Source of the DNA: Methylobacter luteus IMV-B-3098
GTDB taxonomy: Bacteria > Pseudomonadota > Gammaproteobacteria > Methylococcales > Methylomonadaceae
Length of the DNA stretch: 64,000 nt
Direction of reading: 5' to 3'
Assembly: GCF_000427625.1 (NCBI RefSeq)
Contig: NZ_ATYJ01000015.1
Coordinates: 1 to 64,000 of the forward strand
Below, one piece after another: positions 19,934-40,084 of the stretch. Both the position numbers and the translations under genes were made by a program. Position 1 is the first letter of the stretch; each line of letters begins with the position of its first letter. The notes beneath the pieces are model-generated. The model worked only from the letters and a program-made list of their open reading frames with translations, ran no database searches and was not told the origin of the DNA.

Positions 19934-21106
19934 CTAGGCTTCTTGAGCTATTTGTTCTTCAACAATATCAAAGAGGAAATCGCCAAGTTCTTGTTTACGC
20001 TTGATAATATTATTGAATAGTTCAATTGTTTCGTTAATCGTTAAGTCTCCCTGAATACGATTACCATCCGATGACTGCCAGCATACGTTAGTACCTTTAT
20101 GCTTGCCGCCTCTCTTCAGAGGATATAAGTGTCCAACTTGATAATCGGAGCGACCATGCACAACAGGACTTAGAAGAGTATTGAAATTTAAAGATTCCAA
20201 CGTTACTGAGCATCTACTAACATTGAATGATCCAAGTAGCCCTTGATCGTTGAGCTTTTCCTTAATCTCTCTAGGAAATCCTTCAAATCCCACCAGTTCT
20301 GTTAGAAGCTTCCTTTCAACACTCCAACATTCAGTTAAAGTGGCATGTTGGAAATCGTCTGATAAAACTTCCCATCGTTTTGCACGGTTTGTTTTATCTT
20401 TTCCCGTTAACGCCCTATCTGTCTTATAAGTTTTTGTTTGAATTTTATCTTTTAACTGCTTATTAAGAGATGGCCAAATTATAGGTCTAGCTTTAATAAG
20501 CCACTGAATATCATCATTGAGTACCCATCCTATATTTTCAACTTTATGGACTGGATTAATTTTCGGATCAATATAATCAAATACAAATTCATATGGGACA
20601 CTTGTATTCTCTAATAAAGAATTAAGCTCTTGAATTGAAAGTTCATTTTCTGAAACTTTGCATGCCACTGTGTTTAAACAATAGATAAAAATTTCACAAC
20701 ACTCCTCGAAGCTAGATGCACGCGGATCATTCCCAATTTTAAAGGTACCTTGAATAGGTTCAAACGAGCCTTCTTGTGGCATCAGAATTAATCCAGGCAG
20801 CCATCTTGTTTTCATTTTTGTTGAGCCAACCGTTAAATTAGTAAGCTCTATTAAAAAACTAAATCTTAAAAGATTGGCAACTACTTTCTCATGTAAGCGC
20901 TTTGTTGGTAAACATTCTTTAATTTTTTTGAGGGAAGTTCCGACTCGGTCAGTATCATTTAACTCTTGGGCAAATAACCAATCTTTAATTTTGGCAACAG
21001 AATAACTTTTAGTCTTTCCTTCTGCTTTAAGTCCACCAAAAGCATTACTTACAGTATTTCTCTCTTCCAGTTCTAATATTTCTTTTAAATTCTTACTTAG
21101 CGACAT
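19934..21106 (-). CDS. HNH-motif protein, candidate restriction endonuclease
   Basis: A 390-residue protein directly after the controller gene: the controller stop codon at 21107 abuts this start. Only the C-terminal part is recognisable. It reads VGHLYPLKRGG, then TNVCWQSSDGNRIQGDLT at about residues 320-350, an HNH nuclease arrangement with H, N and N/H positions. The N-terminal 300 residues match no family I know. The order controller, HNH protein, methylase-specificity fusion makes it the likely restriction subunit, acting with or beside the fusion methylase. The alternative is an accessory HNH effector. DNA cleavage is inferred from the motif and context. Confidence 0.75.
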   Translation of the reverse strand: MSLSKNLKEILELEERNTVSNAFGGLKAEGKTKSYSVAKIKDWLFAQELNDTDRVGTSLKKIKECLPTKRLHEKVVANLLRFSFLIELTNLTVGSTKMKTRWLPGLILMPQEGSFEPIQGTFKIGNDPRASSFEECCEIFIYCLNTVACKVSENELSIQELNSLLENTSVPYEFVFDYIDPKINPVHKVENIGWVLNDDIQWLIKARPIIWPSLNKQLKDKIQTKTYKTDRALTGKDKTNRAKRWEVLSDDFQHATLTECWSVERKLLTELVGFEGFPREIKEKLNDQGLLGSFNVSRCSVTLESLNFNTLLSPVVHGRSDYQVGHLYPLKRGGKHKGTNVCWQSSDGNRIQGDLTINETIELFNNIIKRKQELGDFLFDIVEEQIAQEA

Positions 21107-25448: not shown

Positions 25449-28400
25449 CTATCCCATTTTCATAGCACGACGCGGCCGCTGTTCTTGTTTAACATCCTGC
25501 TTCTGCCCCTGTTCGAGCTGCTGCATATGCTCCTGGCGTTCATCCTTTTCAAGAAGTGCCTTTTTTACAGCCGCTATGGCCTGGCGCTCAACTCCGTCCC
25601 GGCCCAGCTCGCTCTTGGTGGCAAGATCATTGAAATCAGTAAACGCCTTGGGGTTCGCTGCTTGTTCACCAGGCGCAAAGATCGGGAAGATAGCCTTGCC
25701 ACCAACTGCCTTTGCTGCTTCCTCGGCCTTGACGCGGCCGGGATTGATTCCCTGGGTAGCCGCTAGGTGCCGGTCGTCATCGCCAGCAATGATGATCGGC
25801 TTATCCGGGAACTTCTCATGCAGGGCACGGGCGACATGGGACAAGTTACCCGAGTCGAACGCTGCAACGGTAGCATGATCCAAAGCTTCGGATAGACTGG
25901 CGGCGGTGGCATAGCCCTCTGCTATAACAAGCGTCGGCGCTGCCGCAACAGCATCCATGCCGCCGACTGGATGGAAGCAGCCTTCCTTACGGCTGTCCTT
26001 GGCAAAGCGCTTAGTGCCGCCCTCCTGGATGTACTGCATTGTCCATTGCTTTCCTTCTACATCAAAGGCTGGGATGTAGGTCTTTTGCCCCTCCTTATCA
26101 GTTAGCGCCCCAGCGTGCGCCTCGATGCCCTTGGCTTCCAGGTATGCGGTCGGCTTATTCACTGGTATCAATGTTTCCAGTTGCCGACTAACACGCTGCG
26201 CTGTTGCTTCATGCAAGCGGTCTTGCTCGGCTGCCCGTTCAGCCAGCTTGGTTGCGGCCTCGGCTTGCAGTTTTGCTTTCTCTTGTGGATCTAGCGTATA
26301 GCCTTTTGATTTCCATTTCATGTCGATGCCGGTGCGGTTGTTCTTGATATAACCAGCAGGATGACCGTCCAAGTGACCAACATAAAAGCCAGCCTCCTCA
26401 CCCTTTTTGTCGCCTTCGACGCCAATCCGATGCTTCTTGCCGTCCATGATCGGGTGTTCGCCGGTCACGATGCAGCCCAAGGACTGCAATGCCTCGGTAA
26501 ATTCCTCTTTTGGTGTCATCGCCGGACCTTGCTGGTTTCGCATGTTGTCGGGCTTCCAGCGTTCGAGCTTTGTCATGTCAGCATCAGGGCCGGCATACCA
26601 GAACTTCGCCACCTTATCCCACATAGCGCCCGCTACCTTGGCTGCGACACGCTCGCCATAGGGTACGGCCAAATAAGTACGCTGGTCTTGGTCCTGAACT
26701 TCGACCGGTTTTTCTTCCATAGCTATTTGATTAGAACCCTGCGCCCATTTGGCGAAGGGAGCAGTTTCAACACCAGGCGGAATGTACCATGCCTGCTCTT
26801 GTCGGTCCCATCGTGCACCGAGGGCCTTGGCCTCGCCCTTTTCTCTGTAAGGCACATTGATGTATTGCCGTTCGGACTTCTGTTGATCCTGGTCGCCTCT
26901 CTGCGTCTGCTGTTCGCTCTCGATGGCATTGTGTTGTGATGGTTCCATACTGATCTCCTGCACTTGCGTCTGGTTAAAATACTCCGCAACCAGTTCGGGG
27001 TCGGTCGTTTGCTGCTGGTCCTGCTCCTGTACTTGTTCGAAGGCCAATACATAGTTTTGAATTTTTTCGGCATCGGCCGCTGCACGGAATATTTCAAGAG
27101 GATCGTCTTTCAGCGCTCTGATCCATGATCCGACATACGCTGCATGTTGACCTGGGTCATGACCGATACCCAGCTCATCGCCCAAAATCATGCTTGCAAT
27201 CTCGGCCCGCAGTTCTTCTTTTGCGTACCCCTCACTGCCAAAAGGATGTGCAAGATCGCGATCCAGGCGTGACGAATGGCCAGTCCAGTGCCCTAATTCA
27301 TGCAATGCTGTCGAATAATAGCGCTCTGCGCTTGAAAACAGCCCTTTATCAGGTAAGTGAATGCTATCGGTCGATGGTCGATAAAACGCTCTCTCGCCGC
27401 CGTTATGTTGAATATTGGCACCTGAGGCCGCTAAGATATTTTCAACCCGTTCAATCGGGTTCCAGTTCTGTTCTTTTTTCTGGATCGGTGGTAAACCGTC
27501 GATCTGTTCACCGTTGAACACGGTCGCGAAAAATACGCGAGGCCGTTCCAATCGAACGACTACCTTAAGCGGCTTTCCTTCCGTATCTAACACCGGCTTG
27601 CCGTTATCGTCTTTCTTGATCTGTTCTTCCGTGAATTTCCAGTACTGAATACCGGTCCCTTTCTCGCCTTTTCGAACCTGGCCACCGGCGGCCGCCGCTT
27701 GCTTGTAAGTCATCCAGCGTTGATCGTCATGGTTCTGCGACATCAAGTGCAATGCATTGATCCCCTTGTAACGGTTGCCGGTCGTCGGGTTATACGGCAG
27801 GAAGGAGCCTGATGCGCCGGCCTCCCACGGTCGTTGCCACGGCGCAGTTCCGGCTTCAAGCTGTTTGATCAAGTTCTCGGCAACGGTTTCATGATAGGGT
27901 TTCTTTTCATTCTTCTGATTCATTGAAATATCTCCCTGATAACTGGGTACTGCTATGTCATCGCTTACGTTCTTGGTGGTGATGGCCTCGACACTCGCAT
28001 CTTGAGTGGTCTGCTCGTTTGAAACATCAGGAATCCCATGCTCTTGTTCAGCTTCTTCGGCTGCCTGACGCCTGTTCTTCTCGATCAGATCAACGACAGG
28101 TTTCGAAGCGGTGATGCGCTCAAACACCCCTATTCCGCCGCTGTTAGTTGGAATAAAGACCCGCTCGGCCCAGTTGATGCGCTCGATGAATGCGCCTTGC
28201 TCTTTCAGGACACGTTTTTCGGCATCGGTCAGATAACTGCGTCCTTTAATCTCGATCCGATCCTCGTGGTTGACTTTGGCCGTTGTGATTTCCCAGCCGT
28301 TAGAAAGAATGGCCTTGTTGCCATTTTTGATCGCATTGAACAAATCGCTGGCCGTCATATTGGACAAGCCGGAATCCAGCCCCAAATTCTTGAGCGTTTG

Positions 28401-31400
28401 CTTGGCCGCCTTTGGCCCTAACATTCGACCCAGCAACTGCTCGCCGTCATCGGTCTGCAGCCGCTTGATGGTTTCCGATCCCTCGACGCGATCCCAGATC
28501 GGCAGGATCGCCCCGACTATCATCCGCTCGGTTTTGGTCTCGGTTTTCGGCGCACTGGCGACTTGTTCATGCCAAAGCTTTTCGGCCTCGGCCTCATCAA
28601 TCGCCCGGGTCAGCGTCACCTTCTGATAACGGCCTGAAACGCTCCGGTAATCCCAGCCACGACTCATCACATCGGCATTATCGATGTATCGATGATCGTT
28701 CTTTCTGATCGTATGCACGACGCCACGGTGTACCGTATGGCCTTCTGAGTCGAGCCTTTCGCCTATGTCGGAAAGAAAGAAGACCTCCCCCTTGTTTTTA
28801 CCGAACTCAGCGACAAACCAGCCGCTTAAATCATCGGCATTGCGACGAGAGCCCGCCAAGTTCTTGGCGTCGTCCCATGAGTTATATTGAATCTCGTTGG
28901 TGACATCCAGCTCGACATATCGGGTCTGCGCCCCGGTATTCTTATCTTCATAAGCGACATCATCACGCACTTTTTTGATGCTCAATGCCGTCATGGTCTG
29001 CAAGCCAACGTCATACAAACCCTGTTGTTTAGCGTATTCAACGGACTCTATGAGCCGCTTTTCAAACTCGCCAAAAACGGCGTTCTGCATGTCGGTTTTC
29101 AGTGATAGCAGTCGATTCAAAAACTGCGGTATTGCCGGGATTTTGCTTTCATTCAACGAAAGATTGTCATCCAGCAGATTCAACCCCATTTGCTTGGTGA
29201 CATCATGAAACGACAGATCGGTGTTATTGCGATAAAGGTCGCCGAAGAAATTCTTGAGTGCGATAGAGGCATATTCGCTTTCAAGATTGTCTGACGCCGT
29301 GAACATGCCTTGACTGGTCGCCTCGCGCTGGCCGCGTGTCAATGCGCCTAACTGATCCAGTCTGCGGGCAATGGATGATACAAACCGCTTTTGCGCCTTC
29401 AGGTTGGTGGTGGGCAGCACATAATGCGGTTCTTGCGCCTGATTGGTCCTATGGGTGCGCCCAAAGCCCTGTACAGCCGAATCGGCCCGCCAACCCGGCT
29501 GCAAAATGTAATGAATGCGTTTACGCTGATTCTCGGCGGTGTTGTCAGCGTGGAATGAATACCCGGTACCGCCTGCCCCGGAAAATACCAGAATGTCTTT
29601 TTTGTTGTTCTGGAATGCTTCGGCATCTGCTCTGGATGAGTGCTTACCCCGCTTTTCTTCAACGACCTTCAGATTACCCTCATCATCACGAACCTGGACA
29701 AACCGGCGGCTACGGCCAGTGATCTCGGCCACCTTATCAGAGCCGAAGGCATTAATGATGGAATCCAGCGGATTCTCAGGCACCCGGATTTGTTGCAGGG
29801 TTTCCAGCAATGCATCGCGCAGGGCAATCGCTTCACGATCAAAGACCGGGTTCCCTTCCGAATCCCTGACCGGTACATAAATGATATTGCCGTTATCGTC
29901 TTTGGACTCTTCGTAGGCCGCCACCGGAAAACCGTTGCGAACGTAGTCCATCAGCATCTGCCTTGGCGTGAAATCAAGATCCTCGAGCGCCCTGTCATTG
30001 GCCGTTGCATTGGCAATGATGCGTTCCTGGGCAGCCTCATTGGTGTTGACCAGTTGAATAACGGCGACATGGCCGGCTGCAAGTTGTTCACGAATATCGT
30101 CAATCACGCGGGGCGTTTGCATGGCCGTGATGATCTGGTTAAAGAAGCGTTGATGTGCGCCCCAGAACTGCGCCATTGCCGCGCTTTTCGCTGGACCGCT
30201 GCTGCCGGCCTGGGTAATCTCCAGCGCTTCTTCAACATTCTCTAAAACGATCTGCCAGGCACCGGCCAGCTCGTTGTAAATATCTTCCTGCAAGTCGGAA
30301 AGCGTATGTTCCAGCCGTTCGTAGCTCACGCCGTCGTAGGACAAGGACCGGGCGAGATACATGCCCATTGCCTTCATATCGCGGCTGATGAGCTCCATTG
30401 ACGCGATACCGCCCTTTGAGACATCGCTGATAAAGGTATTCACATCGGCGAATGGCGTACCCTCGCCCCACAGACCTAGCCGGTCCGCATAGCTCAGGTT
30501 GCTAATCTCGGTAGCACCGGTGGCCGACACATAGGTAACCCGCGCATTGGGCAATTCTTTTTGCAGGTTGATGCCGGCAATCGCCTGCTGCGAAGGTTTT
30601 TTAACGCCACGTTTGCCTTTGATTGCAATGGCGTTGCCCATGCTATGCGCTTCATCAAACGCAATCACGCCATCGAAATCCTTGCCCAGCCAGTCGATGA
30701 TCTGTTGGGTGCGCGTCTTTCCGCCCTTCTGCCCCAGATCATTGGCCTGTTTTTTCTCGCCGCCCCGCAGTGTGGAATAGGTCGTAAACAAAATGCCATC
30801 TGCTTGGATGATGTCATTACCGGCCTTGGTTTTACCCTGAAAGAAGATCTTGTTGGGATCGCCGCCTACGCCTGCGAAATCCCTTCTCGCATCCTCAATC
30901 AATCCCTCGTTGAACGAAATCCAGACCGCCTTGTTTCGGCCCTGCATCAGGTTATCGAGGATAATGCCGGATATTTCCCGTCCCTTGCCGACACCTGTCC
31001 CGTCGCCAATGAAAAAGCCTTTCCGCGAACCGTTAGGCAGCAACTGAGAATGCGCTTGTCCGGCATAAACTACAGACTCAAGCTGTGCAATGGATAACAA
31101 TCCGTCTTGTATCAGATCCGCAGGCAGCACGGGCGTATAGATTGGCGCTGGCGGCTCTACAGCCGACATCGCCGCTGACTGTACCAGTTTTCCGGGATGT
31201 GGTTTTGCGCCTGGAATGGTGAGACGCTGAGGACTGTAATTGGCGAATACAGAATCAGTAAACTCGCTGACTTCGCCGCTCTTAATCTCTACTGTAACTG
31301 TTCCGGCCTTGTTGCTTTCACTGACGCCACTATTTCCTCCAATATCTGCGCCGCTGCTTCCTCCAGTGTTTCCGACAGCTCCATTTGAAACTCCACTCCC

Positions 31401-32693
31401 GGCTCCGATTCCGTCATTAACGACATCGCCAATGGTGGATTCGCCGCGAGTTTCGCTATCAGTAACAGGGGCTCCTGAATCTCCCCCGTGTCCAATAGAT
31501 TCCGTTCCAGCGCCTCCCGCACCACTACCAAGGCCGCGAGCTCCGTCGCTGGGTTGCAAGGGATCTGGTACTGCTTGAGTATCCGCTGTGACTGCCGGTT
31601 GATTGAATTCTCGTTGAGAGTGCTGACGTTCATTTCTAATGTCCTCTAACAATGCGGGTAAATCGGCGACCGATTCGACTCTACCTGTCAAAACAGGCTG
31701 AGTCGTCGGCCCGGTTTTATCGATAACCAAAATTTGGTTATCGAACGTCGTGCCATACTTCGCATACTCTTTGCCGGCTATGCCGACATTGGCACGGACC
31801 TTATATTTTTTCTCTATTTCCTTCCACCACTTGCTAAATGCCGGTCGGTCCGCCGCCATACCATTGCCGACAACAGCCACCAACCGGCCGCCGTCCTGTA
31901 GCCGTCTCAATGCCTGCTCGATGTGTCTAGCGCCGTTCGATGTGTCGCGTTGCCCCTGCACACGCCCTGCTGTCGATGAAAACGGCGGATTCATGACAAT
32001 GACTGAAGGCTTTATATCGGACGGTAGTACGTTGTCCAATTGCTCCGCGTTCTCCTTGAACAGTCTCGCCTGGGGGAACAGTGAGGAAAGTAACACCTGT
32101 CTGCGTGGCGATAACTCATTCAGAACAATCTCGGCTCCGGCAATCTTTGGCCAGATTGCCAAATCACCAGTGCCGGCAGACGGCTCGCCCATCACATCGC
32201 TGCGTTTGACGTTTGCCACCCAATTAGCCACAAACGCGAGTGCCGGAGGCGTACTGAATTGCTGGAATTCATCCATTTCCTCATCACGACGCGTTTGCGT
32301 GGGCAGTTTCTGAATACGCTTGGTTAGTTCGATTGCTTTGCTATTTGCCCATGCCGCGTCTTGATCAGTCCAGTCGGCTTTCTCAGTATTGCCAAGATGG
32401 ATGTTAAAAGCCGCTTCCATCGCATCATAGGCGTCCTTGGTAGAATAGATGCCTTCCGCCTGAGTGCCGCCGAAAGCGCGATTCGCCTCGTCAGTTAAGA
32501 ACTTGACTGTGATTTCTCCGTCCCTGTCCAGCTTTTCAGCTAAACGTAGCGCGAGAACATAGCGAGACTGATCAAACGATGCGGTTAATGAGTCCGTCTC
32601 TTTTGGTCGAATAACCGGGGATACTGCCGCATTCCCGGCAACCAGCCAATCATCGAATAAATCCCATTGATCCGGGTAAGATTGCTTAGCCAT
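25449..32693 (-). CDS. DarB-like methylase-helicase fused to ArdC/TraC-type antirestriction primase
   Basis: A 2414-residue multidomain protein in the RP4 traC position. Residues about 140-340 are an adenine-methylase-like domain (GEPSAGTGDL, MNPPF). Residues about 370-480 are a Gly/Ser-rich linker. Residues about 500-1350 are a strawberry-notch-type helicase (GDGTGVGKG, FDEAH, SATG, QGFGRTHRT). Residues 1591-1915 are ArdC: an N-terminal DNA-binding part (PWQRPWEAG) plus a zincin motif HELGH. Residues 1916-2414 have two DUF5710 repeats (YINVPYREKGEAKALGARWD and a second copy) and a TOPRIM primase (IAEGYATAASL). Methylase plus helicase is the plan of phage P1 DarB; ArdC plus primase is that of RP4 TraC1. 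ATG codons preceded by AGGGAG (at 27923) and AGGAG (at 26948) mark both inner junctions, so shorter forms are probably made too. Confidence 0.88.
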   Translation of the reverse strand: MAKQSYPDQWDLFDDWLVAGNAAVSPVIRPKETDSLTASFDQSRYVLALRLAEKLDRDGEITVKFLTDEANRAFGGTQAEGIYSTKDAYDAMEAAFNIHLGNTEKADWTDQDAAWANSKAIELTKRIQKLPTQTRRDEEMDEFQQFSTPPALAFVANWVANVKRSDVMGEPSAGTGDLAIWPKIAGAEIVLNELSPRRQVLLSSLFPQARLFKENAEQLDNVLPSDIKPSVIVMNPPFSSTAGRVQGQRDTSNGARHIEQALRRLQDGGRLVAVVGNGMAADRPAFSKWWKEIEKKYKVRANVGIAGKEYAKYGTTFDNQILVIDKTGPTTQPVLTGRVESVADLPALLEDIRNERQHSQREFNQPAVTADTQAVPDPLQPSDGARGLGSGAGGAGTESIGHGGDSGAPVTDSETRGESTIGDVVNDGIGAGSGVSNGAVGNTGGSSGADIGGNSGVSESNKAGTVTVEIKSGEVSEFTDSVFANYSPQRLTIPGAKPHPGKLVQSAAMSAVEPPAPIYTPVLPADLIQDGLLSIAQLESVVYAGQAHSQLLPNGSRKGFFIGDGTGVGKGREISGIILDNLMQGRNKAVWISFNEGLIEDARRDFAGVGGDPNKIFFQGKTKAGNDIIQADGILFTTYSTLRGGEKKQANDLGQKGGKTRTQQIIDWLGKDFDGVIAFDEAHSMGNAIAIKGKRGVKKPSQQAIAGINLQKELPNARVTYVSATGATEISNLSYADRLGLWGEGTPFADVNTFISDVSKGGIASMELISRDMKAMGMYLARSLSYDGVSYERLEHTLSDLQEDIYNELAGAWQIVLENVEEALEITQAGSSGPAKSAAMAQFWGAHQRFFNQIITAMQTPRVIDDIREQLAAGHVAVIQLVNTNEAAQERIIANATANDRALEDLDFTPRQMLMDYVRNGFPVAAYEESKDDNGNIIYVPVRDSEGNPVFDREAIALRDALLETLQQIRVPENPLDSIINAFGSDKVAEITGRSRRFVQVRDDEGNLKVVEEKRGKHSSRADAEAFQNNKKDILVFSGAGGTGYSFHADNTAENQRKRIHYILQPGWRADSAVQGFGRTHRTNQAQEPHYVLPTTNLKAQKRFVSSIARRLDQLGALTRGQREATSQGMFTASDNLESEYASIALKNFFGDLYRNNTDLSFHDVTKQMGLNLLDDNLSLNESKIPAIPQFLNRLLSLKTDMQNAVFGEFEKRLIESVEYAKQQGLYDVGLQTMTALSIKKVRDDVAYEDKNTGAQTRYVELDVTNEIQYNSWDDAKNLAGSRRNADDLSGWFVAEFGKNKGEVFFLSDIGERLDSEGHTVHRGVVHTIRKNDHRYIDNADVMSRGWDYRSVSGRYQKVTLTRAIDEAEAEKLWHEQVASAPKTETKTERMIVGAILPIWDRVEGSETIKRLQTDDGEQLLGRMLGPKAAKQTLKNLGLDSGLSNMTASDLFNAIKNGNKAILSNGWEITTAKVNHEDRIEIKGRSYLTDAEKRVLKEQGAFIERINWAERVFIPTNSGGIGVFERITASKPVVDLIEKNRRQAAEEAEQEHGIPDVSNEQTTQDASVEAITTKNVSDDIAVPSYQGDISMNQKNEKKPYHETVAENLIKQLEAGTAPWQRPWEAGASGSFLPYNPTTGNRYKGINALHLMSQNHDDQRWMTYKQAAAAGGQVRKGEKGTGIQYWKFTEEQIKKDDNGKPVLDTEGKPLKVVVRLERPRVFFATVFNGEQIDGLPPIQKKEQNWNPIERVENILAASGANIQHNGGERAFYRPSTDSIHLPDKGLFSSAERYYSTALHELGHWTGHSSRLDRDLAHPFGSEGYAKEELRAEIASMILGDELGIGHDPGQHAAYVGSWIRALKDDPLEIFRAAADAEKIQNYVLAFEQVQEQDQQQTTDPELVAEYFNQTQVQEISMEPSQHNAIESEQQTQRGDQDQQKSERQYINVPYREKGEAKALGARWDRQEQAWYIPPGVETAPFAKWAQGSNQIAMEEKPVEVQDQDQRTYLAVPYGERVAAKVAGAMWDKVAKFWYAGPDADMTKLERWKPDNMRNQQGPAMTPKEEFTEALQSLGCIVTGEHPIMDGKKHRIGVEGDKKGEEAGFYVGHLDGHPAGYIKNNRTGIDMKWKSKGYTLDPQEKAKLQAEAATKLAERAAEQDRLHEATAQRVSRQLETLIPVNKPTAYLEAKGIEAHAGALTDKEGQKTYIPAFDVEGKQWTMQYIQEGGTKRFAKDSRKEGCFHPVGGMDAVAAAPTLVIAEGYATAASLSEALDHATVAAFDSGNLSHVARALHEKFPDKPIIIAGDDDRHLAATQGINPGRVKAEEAAKAVGGKAIFPIFAPGEQAANPKAFTDFNDLATKSELGRDGVERQAIAAVKKALLEKDERQEHMQQLEQGQKQDVKQEQRPRRAMKMG

Positions 32694-32699
32694 ACTCGA

Positions 32700-32918
32700 C
32701 TACTCAAGGTCTATCAGGTCAGCGCTACTCTCTAACGCATCGGCTTCACTGATGGCGTCCTCTTCAAAGGCGCCGGCTTTCTCGGCCTCGTCTGGATCAA
32801 ACTCTACCTCAAAGCTTGGCGTTGTTTCTGCATCGCTCAACTTTTCAACGAGCACGTCTGCCTCAGACTCGATCCCAACTTCGTTGGCTGAACTGTTATT
32901 ATCTTCACTTTGCATCAT
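32700..32918 (-). CDS. Small acidic protein in the traD position
   Basis: A 72-residue, strongly acidic protein ([40 protein letters not shown]). The start is ATG 32918, preceded by AGGAG; the TTG at 32933 overlaps that site. It sits between the topoisomerase gene (12 bp from its stop codon) and the large traC-position gene (6 bp before its start), exactly where RP4 has traD. RP4 TraD is itself small and of unclear function. No sequence motif supports more than a positional comparison. Confidence 0.65.
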
Positions 32919-32929
32919 GGTTTTACTCC

Positions 32930-34987
32930 TCAATTACTGTCATTGTTACGGCCCTTGCTATAGTCCGGTCGTCCTTTTAGCTCAGGGTAGGTTTGCTTGC
33001 AGGTAGGGAAGTTGCTGCATCCCCACCAGAAATGGCCTTTCTTTTTGCTGGGCCGGCGTGACAAGCCGCTGCCGCATGCCATGCATTTATGCAGCGAGGA
33101 CACCGGAACAACTTCTTTGCCGCCGGCGATGTGCACCGCTCCCTCGTTAGCCTTCTCTACCTGGTCGCGGATGAAAGCTTCCTGCCTGGCAATGAAGGTG
33201 GTCAACTCGGCGGTGCCTTGCTCGATCCCTTTCAACATCCGCTCATATAAGGCGGTCAGAACCGGGCTTTTCACGACTTCTGGAAGAGCGTCGATGACAC
33301 TGCGGCCCAGGATCGTGCTGACGATCTGCTTGCCCTTAAGGGCCAAGAACTCGCGGCGCTTCAATTCGGAAAGAATGGAAGCGCGGGTGGCCGATGTGCC
33401 GATGCCGTCGCCTTCGCGCAGCATCTTCTTGTGTTCGGAATCGGACACGAATTTATGGATGTTCTCCATTGCGCGGGTCAGTGTGCCCTCTGTGAACCGG
33501 GCTGGCGGTTTCGTCTTGGCGTCCCGCCTGATGGCCGCGGTGCAGGTCACGCCGTCGCCTTGTTTCATGGCCGGCAGGTGTTGATTGCTGCCCTCTTCCG
33601 GATCTTTGCTGCCGTCTTCGTCGGACTCATGAAATACCTCCCGCCAACCATTACGGGTGACAACCTTTCCGCTCGCGGTGAAGGTTTCGCCCTCGACTTC
33701 TGCCGCCACGGTAGTTTTCATATACTCGTGCAGCGGGTAGAACTGCGCCAGGTAAGCCCGGACAATCAACTCATAAATATTGCGCTCCTTGTCAGTGAGG
33801 CCCGCCTTACTGCCTTTGTGCATCGTCGGGATGATTCCGTGGTGCGCGGTGATTTTTGAGTCGTCCCATGTTTTGGACTTGATGCGTAGATCTGTGCCGT
33901 CCACTATCCCGTCCAGCTCGGGATTGACGTGTTTGACCGCTTCCAGCACATCGACTGCGTCGGCATGTTGGGATTCCGGCAGATAGGCGCAATCTGTGCG
34001 TGGATACGAGGTCAACTTGTGGGTTTCATAAAGTGTCTGGCAGACGTTCAGCACATCTTCGGCACTGTACCCAAATTTGTTGGAAGCCAGGAGGGTAATA
34101 TCAGACAGTGCGAAAGCCAGCGGCTGGTTCTGTTTCTTGGCTTCTTGCTTATACTCGGCAATGATGCCGGGCTTGCCAGTCACCTTCTCGACAAGCGCAT
34201 CGGCAATGCCCGTATCGACGAGCCGACCTTCGGAATCGAGGCCAACTTGATCTTCTTTAGCCTTCCAGGCAGCGGTAAAGGGGCCGCCGACGTGCTGAAT
34301 ATCGGCCCGAATGGTGTGATAAGGCACCGGCTTGAATCCTTCTATTTCCCGATCCCTAGTAACAACCAAGGCCAATGTGGGCGTCTGCACACGTCCAACA
34401 GTTAAGAGTGCGCGGGAACCACCCCGCTGCGCCCGAAGTGTATATGCGCGACTAAGATTCATGCCGATGAGCCAATCGGCCCGCTGTCTCGCCTTGGCGG
34501 CATCGGCCCAGCCGGCAAAAGTGGTGTTGTCCTTTAAGGCGGCCAGCCCGCGTCTGACTGAAACAGCATCTTGTGCGGATACCCAAAACCGGCGTACCTG
34601 CTTGGTATTGCAGAAGTGTTCAAGGACCTCGTCAACCAGCAATTGCCCTTCCCGGTCGGGATCACCGGCGTTCACAATTACGTCAGCTTCCTTGAGCAGC
34701 TTTCCAATCGTTGCAAGCTGTTTTTTCGCATCTTCCTTGGGCTTGAGAATCCAGTTCGTAGGAATGATGGGCAGTTCATCGATTCGCCAGACCTTCCGGC
34801 CGTTCTGGCCGCGTGGTACGTCATCCGGTGTGTAGTCATCCGGCTCGGCCTGCTCGAGCATGTGGCCAAAGCACCAGGTTATTTTGTCGTTGCCGCACTG
34901 GATGAATCCGTCGCCTTTTCCAGTAATCCCCAATTCGCCCGCAATGGCTTTTGCCACAGACGGTTTTTCTGCAATAAACAAATTCAT
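32930..34987 (-). CDS. traE: Type IA DNA topoisomerase III, TraE-like
   Basis: A 685-residue type IA topoisomerase. The TOPRIM domain opens the protein ([20 protein letters not shown]) and has the metal motif [11 protein letters not shown] (about 107-117). The catalytic tyrosine lies in [14 protein letters not shown] near residue 327. A C-terminal zinc ribbon ([11 protein letters not shown] then WGCSNFPTC) ends the protein. RP4 TraE is the homologous plasmid topoisomerase and lies in the same place, between traD and traF. It probably resolves topological problems of plasmid replication or transfer. TAAGGAG precedes the start. Complete and apparently functional. Confidence 0.95.
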
Positions 34988-34996
34988 TCCCTCTCC

Positions 34997-35533
34997 TTAC
35001 TGTGTAATTACCGGCCGAATCACGGCCTTGATTTGCGACCGATTGACCGGCCCGAAGTAGCGGCCATCGAAGGATGTGTCGCTCACATCGGACATAAGCA
35101 GCAGCTCTGCTTCGCCTAATCTGTAATGGTCAACATGGAATTGCGGCAGCGCTTGGCCGACAGTATCAACCTTGCGCGGAACACTGAGAGGAAGAAGCTC
35201 ACCATTTACCCGTACTCCCTCATCATTAATCGCTACAATGTCGTTTTTAGCCGCTAAAATTCGTTTTATCATGTAGCCAAATCCGCCGGGACAGAAGCCG
35301 GCCCCGATGTATCCTCTTTCCTTCGCCTTCACAAACACGCCGTTTTGCGGTGGACAAAACATCACATAAGCGCCTTTAGCCACTGGCTCATTGCTGATCC
35401 AGTACAGCCCGATCGGGATGCTTTTCGTAGTGTTGATGCGTGCGCCGACGATGTATGCGGCCCCGCTGACGAACATGGCGGCAATACCCGCAACCGCGAC
35501 GCCACTCGTAAAACGTTCCAAGATACGGCTCAT
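34997..35533 (-). CDS. traF: TraF, conjugative transfer signal peptidase (S26 family)
   Basis: A 178-residue inner-membrane protease with one N-terminal membrane segment (VAVAGIAAMFVSGAAYIVGA). The catalytic serine is in TTKSIPIGLYW (about residue 38) and the lysine in YMIKRILAAKNDIV (about 89). The box SFDGRYFGPV near the C-terminus is typical of signal-peptidase-like TraF. In RP4, TraF processes and cyclises the TrbC pilin; a TrbC with suitable features is present at 58655. The ATG overlaps the traG stop codon (ATGA), so translation is coupled. A KorB operator lies inside this gene. Confidence 0.94.
   Translation of the reverse strand: MSRILERFTSGVAVAGIAAMFVSGAAYIVGARINTTKSIPIGLYWISNEPVAKGAYVMFCPPQNGVFVKAKERGYIGAGFCPGGFGYMIKRILAAKNDIVAINDEGVRVNGELLPLSVPRKVDTVGQALPQFHVDHYRLGEAELLLMSDVSDTSFDGRYFGPVNRSQIKAVIRPVITQ
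35246..35258. promoter_or_regulatory. KorB operator inside traF
   Basis: TTTAGCCGCTAAA, an exact match to the RK2 KorB operator TTTAGC(G/C)GCTAAA. Intragenic KorB sites are also known in RK2, where KorB acts at a distance or bridges sites. Confidence 0.85.
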
Positions 35534-37425
35534 ATCTGAATATCCGCTTTGTACACTTGAATAAGCTTGTCACTCAGTTTTGGAGCCGGAATCGAAGCCC
35601 GAGCCTGAAAGACAGGATCTTTGAAATAGAGCGGCTGTTTTCCGTAGATGGCCGGGTAACCGGCAACGTAGATCACCATGTCACCCGCTTTTTCGATTTC
35701 GCCCGATGCGTTCTTGCGCGGCCCCGGCATGCGCAGACATTCATCGGGTGTAAGCAAAGGCCGCTGTACTTCTTGGATCGTGCGTGATACCTGCCCCATC
35801 ATGGCGGCCGTGCGGCGGCCGCTGGTTGTAATCTGTTCCTTAATCACGGTGGTCTGCCCGGTCAGACGCGAAAGATGCTCGGCAGTCTCGACACGGTTAG
35901 GTGGATAAGCATTTTGAACGTGACAATTGGAGGTAATCTGCTCATCATGACCATATCCCGTTTCCCGGCTACGAAGCTGGTTGATATCCTGGCAAATCAG
36001 ATAACACTTGATGCCGTAGCCAGCCACGAAAGCCAGCGACTCCTGCAGGATTTCCAGCTTTCCAAGACTTGGAAACTCATCCAACATCATGAGCAAACGA
36101 TGCTTATAGTGGGCTACGGGCCGGCCATTCTTGAACTCCATCTTGTCGGCCAGCAGACGCACGATCATGTTCACCATCACGCGCACCAAAGGTCTCAGCC
36201 GGGACTTATCGTTCGGTTGAGTGACTATGTATAGGCTTATCGGGTCGTCGTGGTTCATCAGGTCCTTGATGCGAAACTCTGACTTGCTGACATTCCGGGC
36301 CACAACAGGGTCGCGGTACAAGGCTAAGTAAGATTTGGCCGTGGAAAGGACCGAGCCAGCCTCTTCTTCGGGCCGGTCCATCATGTCCCGAGCCGCCGAT
36401 CCGATAGCTGGATGGTTCTGACCGTCCTGGTGGCCGTAAGTTGCCATTTCCATCCAAAGCTCGGCAATGTCACGGTTTGGATCTGCCAACATGGCATCGA
36501 CGGATGGTAAAGTAGCCTCTGTACCTTCGTGTTTGACCTTGTAAAGCGCGTGCAGGATCACGCCGACCAGCAGCGCGAAGGCTGTTTTCTGCCAATGGGA
36601 TTCAAGACCTTTGCCGTCTGGGTCAACAATGAGGGAAGTAAGGTTTTGTACATCGCCTACCTCGTTTTCCGTGCCAATCCGGACTTCATCCAGGGGATTC
36701 CAGCAAACGCCGCCATTGATCGATGCCGGCTCGAAGCTTAATACTCTATTTCTGGCGTACTTTTTTCTCCAGCCAGCGGTCAAGGCCCAAAGCTCGCCTT
36801 TCAGATCGGTGATCACGGCGCTGGCCGGCCATGCAAGCAGGGTCGGAATAACCAAGCCGACACCCTTGCCGGAACGGGTCGGCGCATACGTCAGGACGTG
36901 TTCAGGCCCGTTATGGCGCAGGTAGTAAAATTTACCATTTTTGTCCTCCCATCCGCCGACATACACACCGGCAGCAGTGGGCAACTCCTTGCCTGTCACG
37001 ATTTCAAGAAAAGTTCTCGGCCGTGGCAATAGGCCCGCAGCTTGAATATCCTTTTGCCCGGCCCATCTAGCCGAACCGTGAAGGTACTCGCTTGCTTTGG
37101 ATGAGTTCGAGGAAATAACCTTAGCTACGGCCACGCTAAGCAGCCCAACAGTGGAAACCAACATGCCAATACTTCCTGCCCGCATGATTTCATTCGGATA
37201 CTGGCCGTACCACATCGATCCCCATTGCAAGATCGACCAGGGCGTATAAATATGGCTTACATGGGCGCCAAGGCTATCCTGATAGTTAAATGTGTAGGCG
37301 AAAAACTGAGTGGCCGATTGCAGTCCGGCACCAAGAGAAAGCACTCCCAAAGTCGGTAGCAGTTTATTGCCTTTCTTTTTGTCCCGAACCTGGGGACCAA
37401 CCGCATTATTGTGTTTAGGTTTCAT
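35530..37425 (-). CDS. traG: TraG, VirD4-type coupling ATPase
   Basis: A 631-residue type IV coupling protein that connects the relaxosome to the mating channel. It has N-terminal membrane segments (LLPTLGVLSLGAGLQSATQF and the region around residues 85-110). The P-loop is in YAPTRSGKGVGLVIPTLLAW (about 180-190). Walker B is LMMLDEFPSLGKL (about 447). The C-terminal part includes ICQDINQLRSRETGYG. The length fits RP4 TraG (635 residues). It overlaps the traI stop codon at its start and the traF start at its end, each by four bases. Confidence 0.96.
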   Translation of the reverse strand: MKPKHNNAVGPQVRDKKKGNKLLPTLGVLSLGAGLQSATQFFAYTFNYQDSLGAHVSHIYTPWSILQWGSMWYGQYPNEIMRAGSIGMLVSTVGLLSVAVAKVISSNSSKASEYLHGSARWAGQKDIQAAGLLPRPRTFLEIVTGKELPTAAGVYVGGWEDKNGKFYYLRHNGPEHVLTYAPTRSGKGVGLVIPTLLAWPASAVITDLKGELWALTAGWRKKYARNRVLSFEPASINGGVCWNPLDEVRIGTENEVGDVQNLTSLIVDPDGKGLESHWQKTAFALLVGVILHALYKVKHEGTEATLPSVDAMLADPNRDIAELWMEMATYGHQDGQNHPAIGSAARDMMDRPEEEAGSVLSTAKSYLALYRDPVVARNVSKSEFRIKDLMNHDDPISLYIVTQPNDKSRLRPLVRVMVNMIVRLLADKMEFKNGRPVAHYKHRLLMMLDEFPSLGKLEILQESLAFVAGYGIKCYLICQDINQLRSRETGYGHDEQITSNCHVQNAYPPNRVETAEHLSRLTGQTTVIKEQITTSGRRTAAMMGQVSRTIQEVQRPLLTPDECLRMPGPRKNASGEIEKAGDMVIYVAGYPAIYGKQPLYFKDPVFQARASIPAPKLSDKLIQVYKADIQI

Positions 37426-39626
37426 TGACTCCTTCCTTTCGATGTCCTGAGCGATCCTGTCGGATTGACCGTAACGGGATCGCCTACCCCGATGCGCTTC
37501 AATCGCCTAGTCGTAGCCTGATCGATAGGCAGCACCATGACTTCATCGCCATGTTTCAGTAGCGCCAAAGCATGCCCGTCGACATTTCTGGTACCGCCAT
37601 AAGTGAAGGTGCCATTTTGTCCGTTATATAGAAAATGCTTCGGTATATCGTAAATTTTAAACCTCTTTTGCTCTCTCTCGTCAATATATTTTTCAGCGGC
37701 AACGATTTGTTCCGGTTTCACTCCTGCCCCAAAAACGCCCCGTCGCAGTGTGTTATCTGGTTGGGTTCCTTGCTGCTCCACGTGACCAGGAACATTACGC
37801 GGCAATAGCACTTCACTTCCGCCGGCGATGCGAACCACACCGAGTTCGGACAGTTCTCGCAAACGGTGCTGGCTTTGGGGCGGCGGAACTCGTCCAGGGC
37901 GTCCAATGTTGGGCTTCCCGACGATACCGGCGGAGCGTTCAGATGCTCCGGCTGCTCGGCTGTCGTTAGGCCCGCCTCTAAATCTGATAGCGTGCTGGTC
38001 GGCAGTGGATCCTGGTCCAGCGCGGCCAGTGCCGCGTCGATCAGTTCGTCCTCGGTCGGAAATTGATCCGGTTCGCTCATTTGCTTTCTCCTTCGTTGAA
38101 AGTTCCTGCCGCCGGCGCTCAAGGCCGGGATCGGCAAAGATGATGGGTAATTGTGATTCAACGGCGGCCCACACGACCTGGGCCTTGAACTCGGCCGTTC
38201 CATTGACGGTGATACGCTCGCCGTATCGCTCCATTGCCAGCCTGAGAGCCGCTTGTAGACCCTCGCTGTTGGTCTCGCGTGATACTTGCAGTTTGTCGCC
38301 ATCGTCTCGTATGGCGCTCATGCCGGCACGGTAAATGATGATTCCCTTCTTCGTGATGTTGTCCAGTATGGGTACGTGGCCAGGCCTGGCTTGACCCTCG
38401 CCTTTGACGGTATTGCCTTTGAGGCCTTGGGCGGCCTCGCGGGCACGCAGGGCAGCCAGGGCCTCGCCATTGCCTTGCATGGACTCTTTCTTGAGCCAGT
38501 CAGCCCATGTGAGGCGTCTGTGCTCATCGTAGAATCTCTTCCGCTCCCTTCGATACTGTTCGTTGATTGCCTGGATTTCGTTGCGCAGAGACTTACTGGC
38601 TTGAGCATACAGCAGCTTTTTGGTCAGTCGCCCCTCGCTCAAGATTTTGATGGCCGCCCGCCGCAGTCGGCTCGACCGTTTGGCAGCCTCTATCTGCTCA
38701 TCCTTCCGCTTTTTTGTCTTCTCCAGAGCGGCCGTCCTGGTAGCTGTTAAGGTTTGCTGTTCAGCCTTGTACCTGGCATATAATTCAACAGTGTTGACAC
38801 GCAGACGTACTGGGTACTTCTGATATTGCCGCTTCACATTGATTTGCGCTTGCCGTTCGGACGATGCCTCGAAGGAACCAAGCCTGGCTTCCAGCTTCGG
38901 TTTAGAAAAATCGCGGGCTACTGTACTTGCTTTAACCATCGTTCCGTCGACGGTTTCGATGACCAGACCGTTAGCGCGTTCGCGCAACTCAAGGCCGTTT
39001 GCACGCATAGTTTGATGCAGCTCTGCCCAAGACTGAGCCTCTCGGATTTCATCCAGACACTCCCGTTTGATCCAGCCGATCAGGCTTTCGATACCGGCAT
39101 GGCGTTCCATGTCGACCGCCCGCCCTTCGGCATTCCGCTTGCGCGATTCGTGGTTATCCGGCTCAAGGCCATAGTCTCGTTCAATGATGGTGCATAGCTC
39201 AGCCAAAGCTCGGTGCGGATAATACGGTTCGTGCATCGTGTGCCGTACTGGATGAATCTTGTTGATGGCAATGTGAATGTGCAGATTGTCCGTATCGTGA
39301 TGTACGGCGCTAATCCGTTGATGCTCACCATAGCCAAGACCGGCACAGATCCGCTCTTCAATGGCCTTGATGGTGTCGGCATTGGGCTTCTCGCCCGTTC
39401 TAAAGCTGACGAGCAAGTGATAGGTCTTGTCTCCCTTGGCTCGAGTGTTGATGTGCTGAGTCGCCAGCACTTCATCAATCGCGGCCTGCACCGTTCCTGC
39501 TGCGCAGTTCGTGACCTGAACCTGCCCAAGTCTTTCGGTTTTTCCCTGTGTATCGGTGATGTAATCCGCCAGTCCTGCAAAATCGCTTTTGCCAAGCGAC
39601 CGCATAGGAACATGCTTTGCAATCAA
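37422..39626 (-). CDS. traI: TraI, MOBP-family relaxase
   Basis: A 734-residue DNA relaxase that nicks oriT and leads the strand into the recipient. The start is TTG 39626 behind GGGAGG; the sequence MIAKHVPMRS is that of RP4 TraI. The catalytic tyrosine is at position 22 (LADYITDTQGK), as in RP4. Motif III, HHDTDNLHIHIAINKIHP, lies at about 109-126. The middle is charged, and the C-terminal domain (IYDIPKHFLYN onward) is conserved in the family. The 3' half also encodes traH in another frame. A KorB operator lies 18 bp upstream of the start, between traI and traJ. Confidence 0.96.
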   Translation of the reverse strand: MIAKHVPMRSLGKSDFAGLADYITDTQGKTERLGQVQVTNCAAGTVQAAIDEVLATQHINTRAKGDKTYHLLVSFRTGEKPNADTIKAIEERICAGLGYGEHQRISAVHHDTDNLHIHIAINKIHPVRHTMHEPYYPHRALAELCTIIERDYGLEPDNHESRKRNAEGRAVDMERHAGIESLIGWIKRECLDEIREAQSWAELHQTMRANGLELRERANGLVIETVDGTMVKASTVARDFSKPKLEARLGSFEASSERQAQINVKRQYQKYPVRLRVNTVELYARYKAEQQTLTATRTAALEKTKKRKDEQIEAAKRSSRLRRAAIKILSEGRLTKKLLYAQASKSLRNEIQAINEQYRRERKRFYDEHRRLTWADWLKKESMQGNGEALAALRAREAAQGLKGNTVKGEGQARPGHVPILDNITKKGIIIYRAGMSAIRDDGDKLQVSRETNSEGLQAALRLAMERYGERITVNGTAEFKAQVVWAAVESQLPIIFADPGLERRRQELSTKEKANERTGSISDRGRTDRRGTGRAGPGSTADQHAIRFRGGPNDSRAAGASERSAGIVGKPNIGRPGRVPPPQSQHRLRELSELGVVRIAGGSEVLLPRNVPGHVEQQGTQPDNTLRRGVFGAGVKPEQIVAAEKYIDEREQKRFKIYDIPKHFLYNGQNGTFTYGGTRNVDGHALALLKHGDEVMVLPIDQATTRRLKRIGVGDPVTVNPTGSLRTSKGRSQ
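37718..38080 (-). CDS. traH: TraH, nested within traI in another frame
   Basis: A 120-residue acidic protein wholly contained in traI in a different frame on the same strand. The ATG at 38080 has AAGGAG seven bases upstream, inside traI. The N-terminus is MSEPDQFPTEDELIDAALAA, rich in Asp and Glu, followed by LDQDPLPTSTLSDLEAGLTT. RP4 traH has the same nested position and a similar size (119 residues). RP4 TraH stabilises the TraI-TraJ-oriT complex in the relaxosome. The ribosome-binding site and the acidic start argue that this is a real gene and not a chance frame. Confidence 0.8.
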   Translation of the reverse strand: MSEPDQFPTEDELIDAALAALDQDPLPTSTLSDLEAGLTTAEQPEHLNAPPVSSGSPTLDALDEFRRPKASTVCENCPNSVWFASPAEVKCYCRVMFLVTWSSKEPNQITHCDGAFLGQE

Positions 39627-39643
39627 GTCGCCTCCCTGAGGAT

Positions 39644-39656
39644 TTTAGCCGCTAAA
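39644..39656. promoter_or_regulatory. KorB operator between traI and traJ
   Basis: TTTAGCCGCTAAA matches the KorB operator exactly. It lies between the traJ stop codon (39661) and the traI start (39626), so KorB could reduce expression of the relaxase operon. Confidence 0.85.
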
Positions 39657-39660
39657 AAAT

Positions 39661-40029
39661 TCATGATTCAGCCCTTGGGCGAACCACCGACTTCATAACC
39701 TGCCCCATTTCATCCTGCGTGGACTCGATCCTGCTCAGCAACGCCCGGATTGTGGCCTCGCCAAACTGAGCAGTACGTCTGTCATTTGTCAGCCAAAGCT
39801 TCAGGAGACCGCCCAAACGTCCAAGATCGCCATTGATGCGTGCCAATTCGCGCACTTGTTCGAAGTCTACAATGCCTGTGACTTTATAGCCCCGCCCGAC
39901 AGTCAGCAGAAAAGCAGACAGACTCATGCCCGCTGCCTTGGCGTTTGCCTCGATCTGCAGTCGCTCTTCTGGAAGGCAGTACACCTTGATGGGCGGACTT
40001 TCTTTCCGGGTTTTCTTCTTATCTCTCAT
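39661..40029 (-). CDS. traJ: TraJ, oriT-binding relaxosome protein
   Basis: About 122 residues, closely following RP4 TraJ: the segments SPPIKVYCLPEER, AAGMSLSAFLLTVGRGYKVT and VRELARINGDLGRLGGLLKL are diagnostic. TraJ binds the inverted repeat beside nic and positions TraI. Several ATG codons lie close together; 40029 is preferred because GAGG lies six bases upstream, with 40032 and 40041 as alternatives. It reads away from oriT as the first gene of the leftward relaxase operon. Confidence 0.94.
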   Translation of the reverse strand: MRDKKKTRKESPPIKVYCLPEERLQIEANAKAAGMSLSAFLLTVGRGYKVTGIVDFEQVRELARINGDLGRLGGLLKLWLTNDRRTAQFGEATIRALLSRIESTQDEMGQVMKSVVRPRAES

Positions 40030-40084
40030 CATTTCCCTCATCTAAAGCCGGCGGTAGCCGGCCAGCCTCGCAGAGCAGGATAAC

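What the first reader, a model, noticed from the sequence alone, without database searches (positions are those of the whole stretch)
25449..32693. Three-tier antirestriction/primase fusion: DarB-like methylase-helicase joined to a TraC1/TraC2-like protein, with retained internal starts
The frame is continuous over 2414 residues, yet both domain junctions carry a Shine-Dalgarno plus ATG: AGGGAG before ATG 27923 (start of ArdC) and AGGAG before ATG 26948 (start of DUF5710-primase). Known parallels: RP4 traC makes TraC1 and a shorter TraC2 from an internal start; the TraC1 N-terminus is ArdC-like and TraC1 enters recipients with the DNA; phage P1 DarB is a methylase-helicase antirestriction protein. 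Inference: one locus encodes three nested products, and the longest could carry DarB-like antirestriction into the recipient during mating.
Basis: partly seen in the sequence, partly recalled or inferred. Interest (0 to 1): 0.85.

Follow-up and report, generated by a model that had tools for sequence, protein, structure and literature searches.

The report
Fused conjugation protein with built-in starts
A conjugative plasmid, probably of a methane-oxidising bacterium, joins a DNA methylase-helicase to a mating primase in one huge gene, and conserved start signals inside the gene suggest that it also makes the shorter, older protein on its own.

Summary
The 2414-codon frame is real: adenine-methylase motifs, Strawberry-notch (Sno) helicase, ArdC-N, zincin peptidase, two DUF5710, Toprim primase. 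It sits in the traC place of an IncP-like transfer operon. The architecture class is published: "polyvalent proteins", with RP4 TraC1, P1 DarB and a Methylomonas Sno example (PMC5512222). The added point is the nested starts. ATG 27923 lies where free-standing TraC genes begin. Of 19 fused loci, window included, 18 keep an ATG there; 13 of 18 have a Shine-Dalgarno duplex of -8 kcal/mol or better, against 2.4% of 755 other in-frame ATGs. None of 2000 synonymous-codon shuffles reaches that strength, though the linker upstream is hypervariable. ATG 26948 resembles RP4's TraC2 start but is weaker evidence: no ATG in that gap in three relatives, weak ones in others, homology to RP4 not stable. "DarB-like" is half right: methylase related, helicase of another family. 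Delivery and antirestriction are inferred, not shown. Verdict: a new variant of a known kind, with a strongly supported internal start.

The parts
25449..32693 (-). fused gene, 2414 codons, 265.7 kDa (methylase-Sno helicase-ArdC-peptidase-2x DUF5710-Toprim)
32700..32918 (-). small acidic TraD-like ORF (72 codons) whose stop lies 6 nt before the fused gene's ATG
   Evidence: named by its position, as R751 traD; no profile match was sought
31704..32276 (-). N6-adenine-type methylase domain: F-S-TP, EPSAGTGD and NPPF motifs
   Evidence: MTS below its cut-off; PHROG methylases; STP, SAGTGD and NPPF invariant in 16 rows
30270..31202 (-). AAA_34 NTPase (Sno helicase lobe 1; Walker A and DEAH present)
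28998..29774 (-). Helicase_C_4 (C-terminal domain of Strawberry notch homologues)
27932..27937 (-). internal Shine-Dalgarno AGGGAG at the ArdC junction
27921..27923 (-). internal start ATG, codon 1591; predicted TraC1-like product 824 aa, 91.8 kDa
27591..27896 (-). ArdC-N ssDNA-binding domain
   Evidence: R388 ArdC structures 6i89/6sna match 1598-1880 at E 4e-47
27075..27452 (-). zincin-like peptidase MPTase-PolyVal, HELGH
26955..26959 (-). internal Shine-Dalgarno AGGAG before codon 1916
26946..26948 (-). second internal start ATG, codon 1916; possible TraC2-like product 499 aa, 55.2 kDa
   Evidence: moderate support only
26742..26870 (-). first of two DUF5710 domains
25617..25931 (-). Toprim primase domain (EGYATA, DDD)
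   Evidence: Toprim_3 2.3e-8; PHROG DNA primases
32930..40041 (-). upstream transfer genes: topB/traE, traF, traG, traI (MOBP relaxase), traJ

Best explanation
This is the traC gene of an IncP-like conjugative plasmid to whose front a methylase-Sno-helicase gene has been joined in frame without loss of traC's own ribosome binding site. I infer that the cell makes at least two and perhaps three nested products with a common C-terminus. The first is a scarce 266-kDa full-length protein, started from a weak site right behind traD, probably by translational coupling. The second is a more abundant 92-kDa TraC1-like protein from the strong internal start at codon 1591. The third, less surely, is a 55-kDa TraC2-like primase from codon 1916. 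Since the ArdC part is called the 'protein transport' domain of RP4 TraC1 (title of a cited paper, seen), the full-length and TraC1-like forms would enter the recipient with the strand. There ArdC coats ssDNA, the primase starts second-strand synthesis, and the methylase-helicase would track along and modify the new duplex before type I restriction acts. Shown here by sequence: the fusion, its place, the conserved start at codon 1591. Inferred: protein levels, transport, methylation target, antirestriction.
For: The same fusion in one frame in 18 other loci, one of them (MEALZ_p) with an in-frame stop after codon 133, one (L046) a fragment without the front. 17 of 18 loci that hold the front of the gene have TraG and TraF just upstream. 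Codon 1591: ATG in 18 of 19, SD of -8 or better in 13 of 18, against 2.4% of 755 other in-frame and 1.75% of 2226 out-of-frame ATGs. 13 representatives: mean -9.02 against -5.05 for synonymous shuffles, 0 of 2000 as strong. Nucleotide identity 0.55 in the SD stretch against 0.29-0.31 further upstream. Of 23 columns with Met in at least 11 of 13 rows, only this one has SD of -8 or better in most rows (9), and its flanks are variable. Mean RNA structure around it is weaker (-8.4 against -14.4) and the following codons are A-richer (0.47 against 0.25) than at 507 other ATGs. Free-standing genes start 19-22 codons before the same GTAPW anchor (fused: 21-26) with SD -10.8 to -11.1: pYKCG107, L. geestiana plasmid, LR890580, pBS228. 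Motifs: NPPF, EPSAG, Walker A and DEAH in 18 of 19 (L046 lacks that part), HELGH in 18 of 19, EGYATA in 16 of 19.
Against: No protein or ribosome data. L048 has no ATG at the junction (TTG, SD -5.8). Five of 18 have SD weaker than -8 (L004, L033, L047, L051, L052). One representative (L036) has average RNA structure at the site. Codon 1916: L034, L035 and L043 have no ATG in that gap, L046 (-5.4) and L031 (-6.0) only weak ones, L032 only a GTG; the window's own gap is not beyond chance (98 of 300); RP4 Met316 never aligns with it. EGYATA is missing in L034, L035 and L046, so not every fused gene keeps the primase motif as written. R388 ArdC acts when made in recipients, not when supplied from donors.
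Confidence: 0.6

Rival explanations
1. The internal Shine-Dalgarno sites are relics of the pre-fusion traC gene and are no longer used; only the full-length protein is made and is later cut by its own peptidase domain.
For: The site lies where free-standing traC genes begin, so it probably was once a gene start. Iyer et al. propose self-processing of polyvalent proteins by the MPTase domain (PMC5512222, passages of section 8).
Against: Linkers have diverged to about 0.3 nucleotide identity while SD and ATG stay; synonymous shuffles do not reach the SD strength (0 of 2000); the site has on average the low structure and A-rich codons of used starts.
Confidence: 0.2
2. The conserved SD-like stretch at the ArdC junction serves as a translation pause between domains, not as a start.
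For: It lies at a domain junction. That SD-like stretches can slow ribosomes is recalled and debated, not from a call.
Against: A pause needs no ATG, yet ATG is kept in 18 of 19 at start-like spacing (scored 7 in 10 of 18, 4-8 in all 18) while neighbouring residues vary.
Confidence: 0.08
3. The methylase-helicase does not counter restriction but serves plasmid replication, repair or partition after transfer; the fusion only links it to the incoming strand.
For: Methylase-Sno relatives occur in 709 plasmid records; many of the 60 records listed show it as a separate gene beside ParB-like and ArdC-like genes, and the Mesorhizobium cluster adds a Toprim gene, which fits establishment in general.
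Against: Its methylase is related to that of DarB, and ArdC, with antirestriction shown for R388, is its partner.
Confidence: 0.25

Closest known systems
Polyvalent proteins (Iyer et al. 2017, PMC5512222), including the Methylomonas Sno example WP_020485828.1
   Same: Several unrelated enzymatic domains in one chain, ArdC-N + MPTase + Toprim, methylase-helicase dyad, encoded with T4SS transfer genes; a Methylomonas protein with a Sno-type ATPase is named there. I could not fetch that accession; that it is a member of this very family is inferred.
   Different: The main text has no 'internal start', 'alternative start' or 'isoform' (term search; the ftp supplements were not seen). Nested products from one polyvalent gene are the added point.
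TraC1/TraC2 of RP4 and TraC of R751
   Same: Same domains, same place after traE-traD; ArdC starts correspond; strong SD-ATG before the primase part (746-codon product in RP4-type pBS228, 747 in R751). That TraC2 has 746 residues is recalled.
   Different: pBS228 traC lacks the methylase-helicase. R751 has another front of about 219 codons with HEVLGHYG and a strong SD of its own (-10.0), with an ATG kept at the same junction but a weaker SD of -5.0.
DarB of phage P1
   Same: Large methylase-helicase; methylase domains match PHROG 9133 at the same place.
   Different: DarB helicase is SNF2 (PF00176), here AAA_34/Helicase_C_4; DarB is a virion protein with an N-terminal packaging signal (part of the abstract and passages of PMC9024508).
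ArdC of R388
   Same: ArdC-N + peptidase, match 4e-47 to its structures.
   Different: Stand-alone, 297 aa; needed in the recipient.

Membership tests
Polyvalent proteins | several unrelated domains in one polypeptide | tested here: met
   AAA_34, Helicase_C_4, ArdcN, MPTase-PolyVal, DUF5710, Toprim_3
Polyvalent proteins | encoded beside conjugation or virion genes | tested here: met
Polyvalent proteins | delivered into the recipient with DNA | not testable with these tools
   needs a mating experiment
IncP TraC primases | ArdC-N + peptidase + Toprim in one chain | tested here: met
   aligned with R751 and pYKCG107 TraC
IncP TraC primases | place in the operon after traI-traG-traF-traE-traD | tested here: met
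IncP TraC primases | second product (TraC2) from an internal in-frame start before the primase part | tested here: inconclusive
   SD-ATG at 26948 present, but window alone 98 of 300 shuffles and not aligned with RP4 Met316
DarB | gamma-class adenine methylase with TP and NPPF motifs, related to that of DarB | tested here: met
   hhalign probability 55%, E 1.2e-4, over EPSAGTG to N(P)PF
DarB | SNF2-type helicase as in DarB | tested here: not met
   DarB PF00176, window AAA_34/Helicase_C_4 and no PF00176 at E 0.01
DarB | LPD36 domain with GXG(G/A/S) motif before the methylase | tested here: inconclusive
   no such motif seen by eye in residues 1-146; no profile available
DarB | protects DNA in cis from type I restriction | not testable with these tools
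   experiment needed

The most novel reading that the evidence does not exclude
Conjugative plasmids build their delivered proteins by adding modules in front of traC while selection keeps traC's ribosome binding site inside the growing gene. One locus then yields a nested set of products, with few long antirestriction-armed copies and many short primase copies. The same junction has been used at least twice with different fronts: methylase-Sno here, another domain in R751.
Probability: 0.5. Interest if true: 0.65.

Novelty: new variant of a known kind. Interest (0 to 1): 0.52.

Why it matters
It gives a simple, testable rule for how giant multi-domain transfer proteins can evolve without losing the older, essential product: fusion with retained internal initiation. 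It predicts product sizes from sequence. It also links two open questions: whether TraC1-type proteins carry antirestriction into the recipient (called untested in PMC7213743), and why polyvalent proteins are so long when a delivery channel should favour short ones.

Tried and rejected
Direct BLASTP of the fusion against P1 DarB gave nothing significant: the best E, 0.034, is a 15-residue match outside the methylase, and the methylase stretch scored E 0.31; the PHROG route was more telling. NCBIfam gave no family for the fusion and PADLOC none. Of 7 inserts between peptidase and DUF5710 given to Pfam, 6 had no match and L036 a weak FR47 acetyltransferase-like one. Alignment of codon 1916 with RP4 Met316 was tried in three MAFFT modes: R751's ATG aligned with it in 3 of 3, RP4's in none, the fused Methylomonas ones in 1; an earlier full-length alignment put window, L036, L042, L051, L052 and the GTG of L032 in one column. 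A window ATG at 30398 (codon 766) with SD -7.1 is kept in 13 of 13 representatives, SD of -6 or better in 11, but lies in conserved protein sequence (0.84 and 0.99), so I read it as protein constraint. A structure model of codons 1231-1590 had mean pLDDT 41.8 and was not used. One origin of the fusion was neither shown nor ruled out by the tree (26 rows; 15 fused rows form a group at 99/98, the other 4 fused rows lie outside it; the L061, L038 and L007 ArdC rows were dropped because my anchor pattern failed).

How rows were chosen: fused set = window + 13 of the 19 genome-contig loci + L002, L003, L004 + L051, L052 = 19. Left out of the 19 genome-contig loci: L041 and L045 (fragments), L037 (frame stops 77 bases before the contig end, before the ArdC part), L038 and L040 (ArdC upstream of methylase-Sno; L040 shows only its tail), L049 (broken). 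L005 is broken by frame changes and an IS66 and was left out of counts. L010-L023 are genome search copies, by position and identity mostly the same loci as above, and were not counted again. Representatives: 13 of the 18 with ATG, one per close cluster, picked by me. For codon 1591 the last ATG 16-30 codons before the GTAPW-type anchor was taken; for L048, where the anchor pattern fails, 45 codons were read by hand. For the second start I took the best or likeliest site per gene, which is biased; (18 gaps: 15 fused, 3 free-standing) is the unbiased version.

Full report
What was claimed.

The frame is 25449-32693(-), 2414 codons. Pfam finds AAA_34 498-808, Helicase_C_4 974-1232, ArdcN 1600-1701, MPTase-PolyVal 1748-1873, DUF5710 (two stretches, best 1942-1984) and Toprim_3 2255-2359; the methylase is seen by motifs (F-S-TP, EPSAGTGD, NPPF) and by PHROG methylase matches. 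The two ATGs and their SD stretches are as stated. Upstream lie topB/traE, traF, traG, a MOBP traI and traJ, and on the other strand traL, traM, trbB, trbE, trbF, trbG: an IncP-like transfer system on a 96,625-base contig. The gene holds the place that traC holds in R751.

Relatives. The methylase-helicase part alone matches 709 plasmid records; the commonest genera are mostly Alphaproteobacteria. In the one such cluster that I opened (Mesorhizobium), ArdC, ParB-like, methylase-Sno, Toprim and DUF2493 genes are separate and in a row. Of 251 genomes sampled from the window's order (own included), 20 match the front part, 15 of them at E = 0, the other five weakly or in part; a scan of 84,980 species genomes gave 19 loci. 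Together with the window, 19 loci carry methylase-Sno and ArdC in one frame: L034 has a shortened end, L032 is cut by the contig end, L046 is a fragment without the front, and MEALZ_p has an in-frame stop after codon 133. In the Chromatiales loci L005, L038 and L040 an ArdC gene (in L040 only its tail) stands separately just upstream; L005 also has a second, broken ArdC part behind its Sno part.

The start at codon 1591. Free-standing traC genes begin 19-22 codons before a conserved GTAPW anchor, with a strong SD: pYKCG107 -10.8, L. geestiana plasmid -11.1, LR890580 -10.9, pBS228 (RP4-like) -11.1 kcal/mol. The 18 fused loci with an ATG have it 21-26 codons before the same anchor; L048 has none. 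SD duplex energy is -8 or better in 13 of 18; the exceptions are L004 -6.5, L033 -4.9, L047 -5.8, L051 -6.8, L052 -6.8. Among 755 other in-frame ATGs of these genes 2.4% reach -8, among 2226 out-of-frame ATGs 1.75%. For 13 representatives the mean is -9.02; with the same amino acids and each gene's own codons it is -5.05, and 0 of 2000 shuffles reach the observed mean. Mean pairwise nucleotide identity is 0.55 at -16 to -6, 0.29-0.31 further upstream, 0.48 at -6 to 0 and 0.42-0.44 in the codons that follow. Of 23 alignment columns with Met in at least 11 of 13, this one alone has SD of -8 or better in most rows (9), and its protein flanks are hypervariable (0.29 and 0.12); the only Met with a still more variable upstream flank is the true first Met (0.10). 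RNA around it folds more weakly on average (-8.4 against -14.4 for 507 other ATGs; one row, L036, is average) and the next ten codons are A-rich (0.47 against 0.25). These are the marks of a used start, kept by selection rather than left over.

The start at codon 1916. Strong SD-ATGs stand between peptidase and DUF5710 in pBS228 (codon 316, leaving 746 residues, which by recall is TraC2), in R751 (leaving 747), in pYKCG107 and in nine fused loci (-9.3 to -11.7 in L003, L004, L033, L036, L039, L042, L044, L047, L051), with a GTG at -9.5 in L032. But L034, L035 and L043 have no ATG in this gap, and L046, L031 and L052 only weak or middling ones (-5.4, -6.0, -6.6). The window's own site is not beyond chance (98 of 300 shuffles), although the 18 gaps tested together are (0 of 300). 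Alignment puts R751's ATG on the window's codon 1916 in three of three modes, RP4's in none, and the fused Methylomonas ones in one. The gap is a slot of changing inserts (49 to 800 codons), so the third product is likely in some loci and uncertain in this one.

The full-length start. Its SD is weak in the window (-2.2) and between -2.0 and -6.3 in the 18 rows listed (for L002 the restart after its stop, for L033 and L048 the first start codon is TTG or GTG), and it lies 6 nt after the stop of a 72-codon traD-like frame. Inference: the long protein is made by coupling and in smaller amounts than the TraC1-like form.

DarB. DarB and the window's methylase both match PHROG 9133 at the same stretch (148.7 and 54.6 bits), and a profile comparison aligns EPSAGTG to the NPPF region (probability 55%, E 1.2e-4). 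Plain BLASTP finds nothing significant. The helicases differ: SNF2-rel_dom and Helicase_C in DarB, AAA_34 and Helicase_C_4 here. Iyer et al. treat both as SWI2/SNF2-clade ATPases and name a Methylomonas polyvalent protein of the Sno kind (PMC5512222: abstract, sections 14 and 18 read, other passages by term search). So the architecture class is not new. Their main text, searched for 'internal start', 'alternative start' and 'isoform', had none of these.

Function. ArdC of R388 binds ssDNA and protects against HsdRMS, needed in recipients, not supplied from donors, and without need of its peptidase activity (PMC7213743, abstract and passages, Discussion). That paper also says TraC1 is transferred and that its antirestriction is untested. 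The catalytic motifs are mostly kept: NPPF, EPSAG, Walker A and DEAH in 18 of 19 (L046 lacks that part), HELGH in 18 of 19 (L048 has another HExxH), EGYATA in 16 of 19 (not in L034, L035, L046).

A parallel. R751 traC has its own front of about 219 codons with HEVLGHYG, begun from a strong SD (-10.0), and keeps an ATG with SD -5.0 at the ArdC junction; pEG1-1 and a broken copy on a Xanthomonas plasmid are alike. The fusion of the window has no match to that front. Two different fronts joined at one junction suggest a general route; by recall, R751 is known to make several primase polypeptides.

Verdict. The fusion is a known kind (polyvalent protein, TraC family). The conserved internal start that survives inside the fused gene is, as far as my searches reach, not described and is strongly supported by sequence; the third tier and the antirestriction role remain hypotheses.

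Noticed in passing
window 1454-9544 (-): 2696-aa protein with SpvB, FG-GAP, TcdB-middle, RHS and a C-terminal pretoxin-HINT match; described only.
   Followed up: no
window 17774-19702 and 19934-21106 (-): N6-methylase with a specificity-subunit-like C-terminal half (matches MAD2 and type I/II methylases) beside a 390-aa frame without NCBIfam or PADLOC match: a possible defence or modification locus on the same contig.
   Followed up: partly
window 50469-54326 (+): 1285-aa protein with RecD2-like helicase from about residue 571.
   Followed up: no
window 42385-45240 (+): 951-aa protein with a C-terminal AAA ATPase domain, below all listed family cut-offs.
   Followed up: no
L004, L036, L039, L003, L042, L051, L006, L050, L056: The stretch between peptidase and DUF5710 is a slot with inserts; gaps run from 49 to 800 codons over all rows. 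6 of 7 given to Pfam had no match; L036 has a weak acetyltransferase-like match.
   Followed up: partly
L002 (MEALZ_p) 5995-6421: In-frame TAG after codon 133 of the fusion, next ATG 19 bases on; the remaining methylase would begin just before its TP motif.
   Followed up: partly
L050, L057, L058: R751-type traC has a different front of about 219 codons with HEVLGHYG and keeps an ATG at the ArdC junction.
   Followed up: partly
L048 3858-12818: Variant with a RadC-like front of about 600 codons before methylase-Sno-ArdC-primase; TraE/TraF-like genes lie downstream, not upstream; no ATG at the ArdC junction.
   Followed up: partly
L063-L066: Four IMG/VR contigs encode methylase-Sno relatives (37 to 63% identity) without ArdC or TraE/F/G/I matches in the stretches held.
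   Followed up: no
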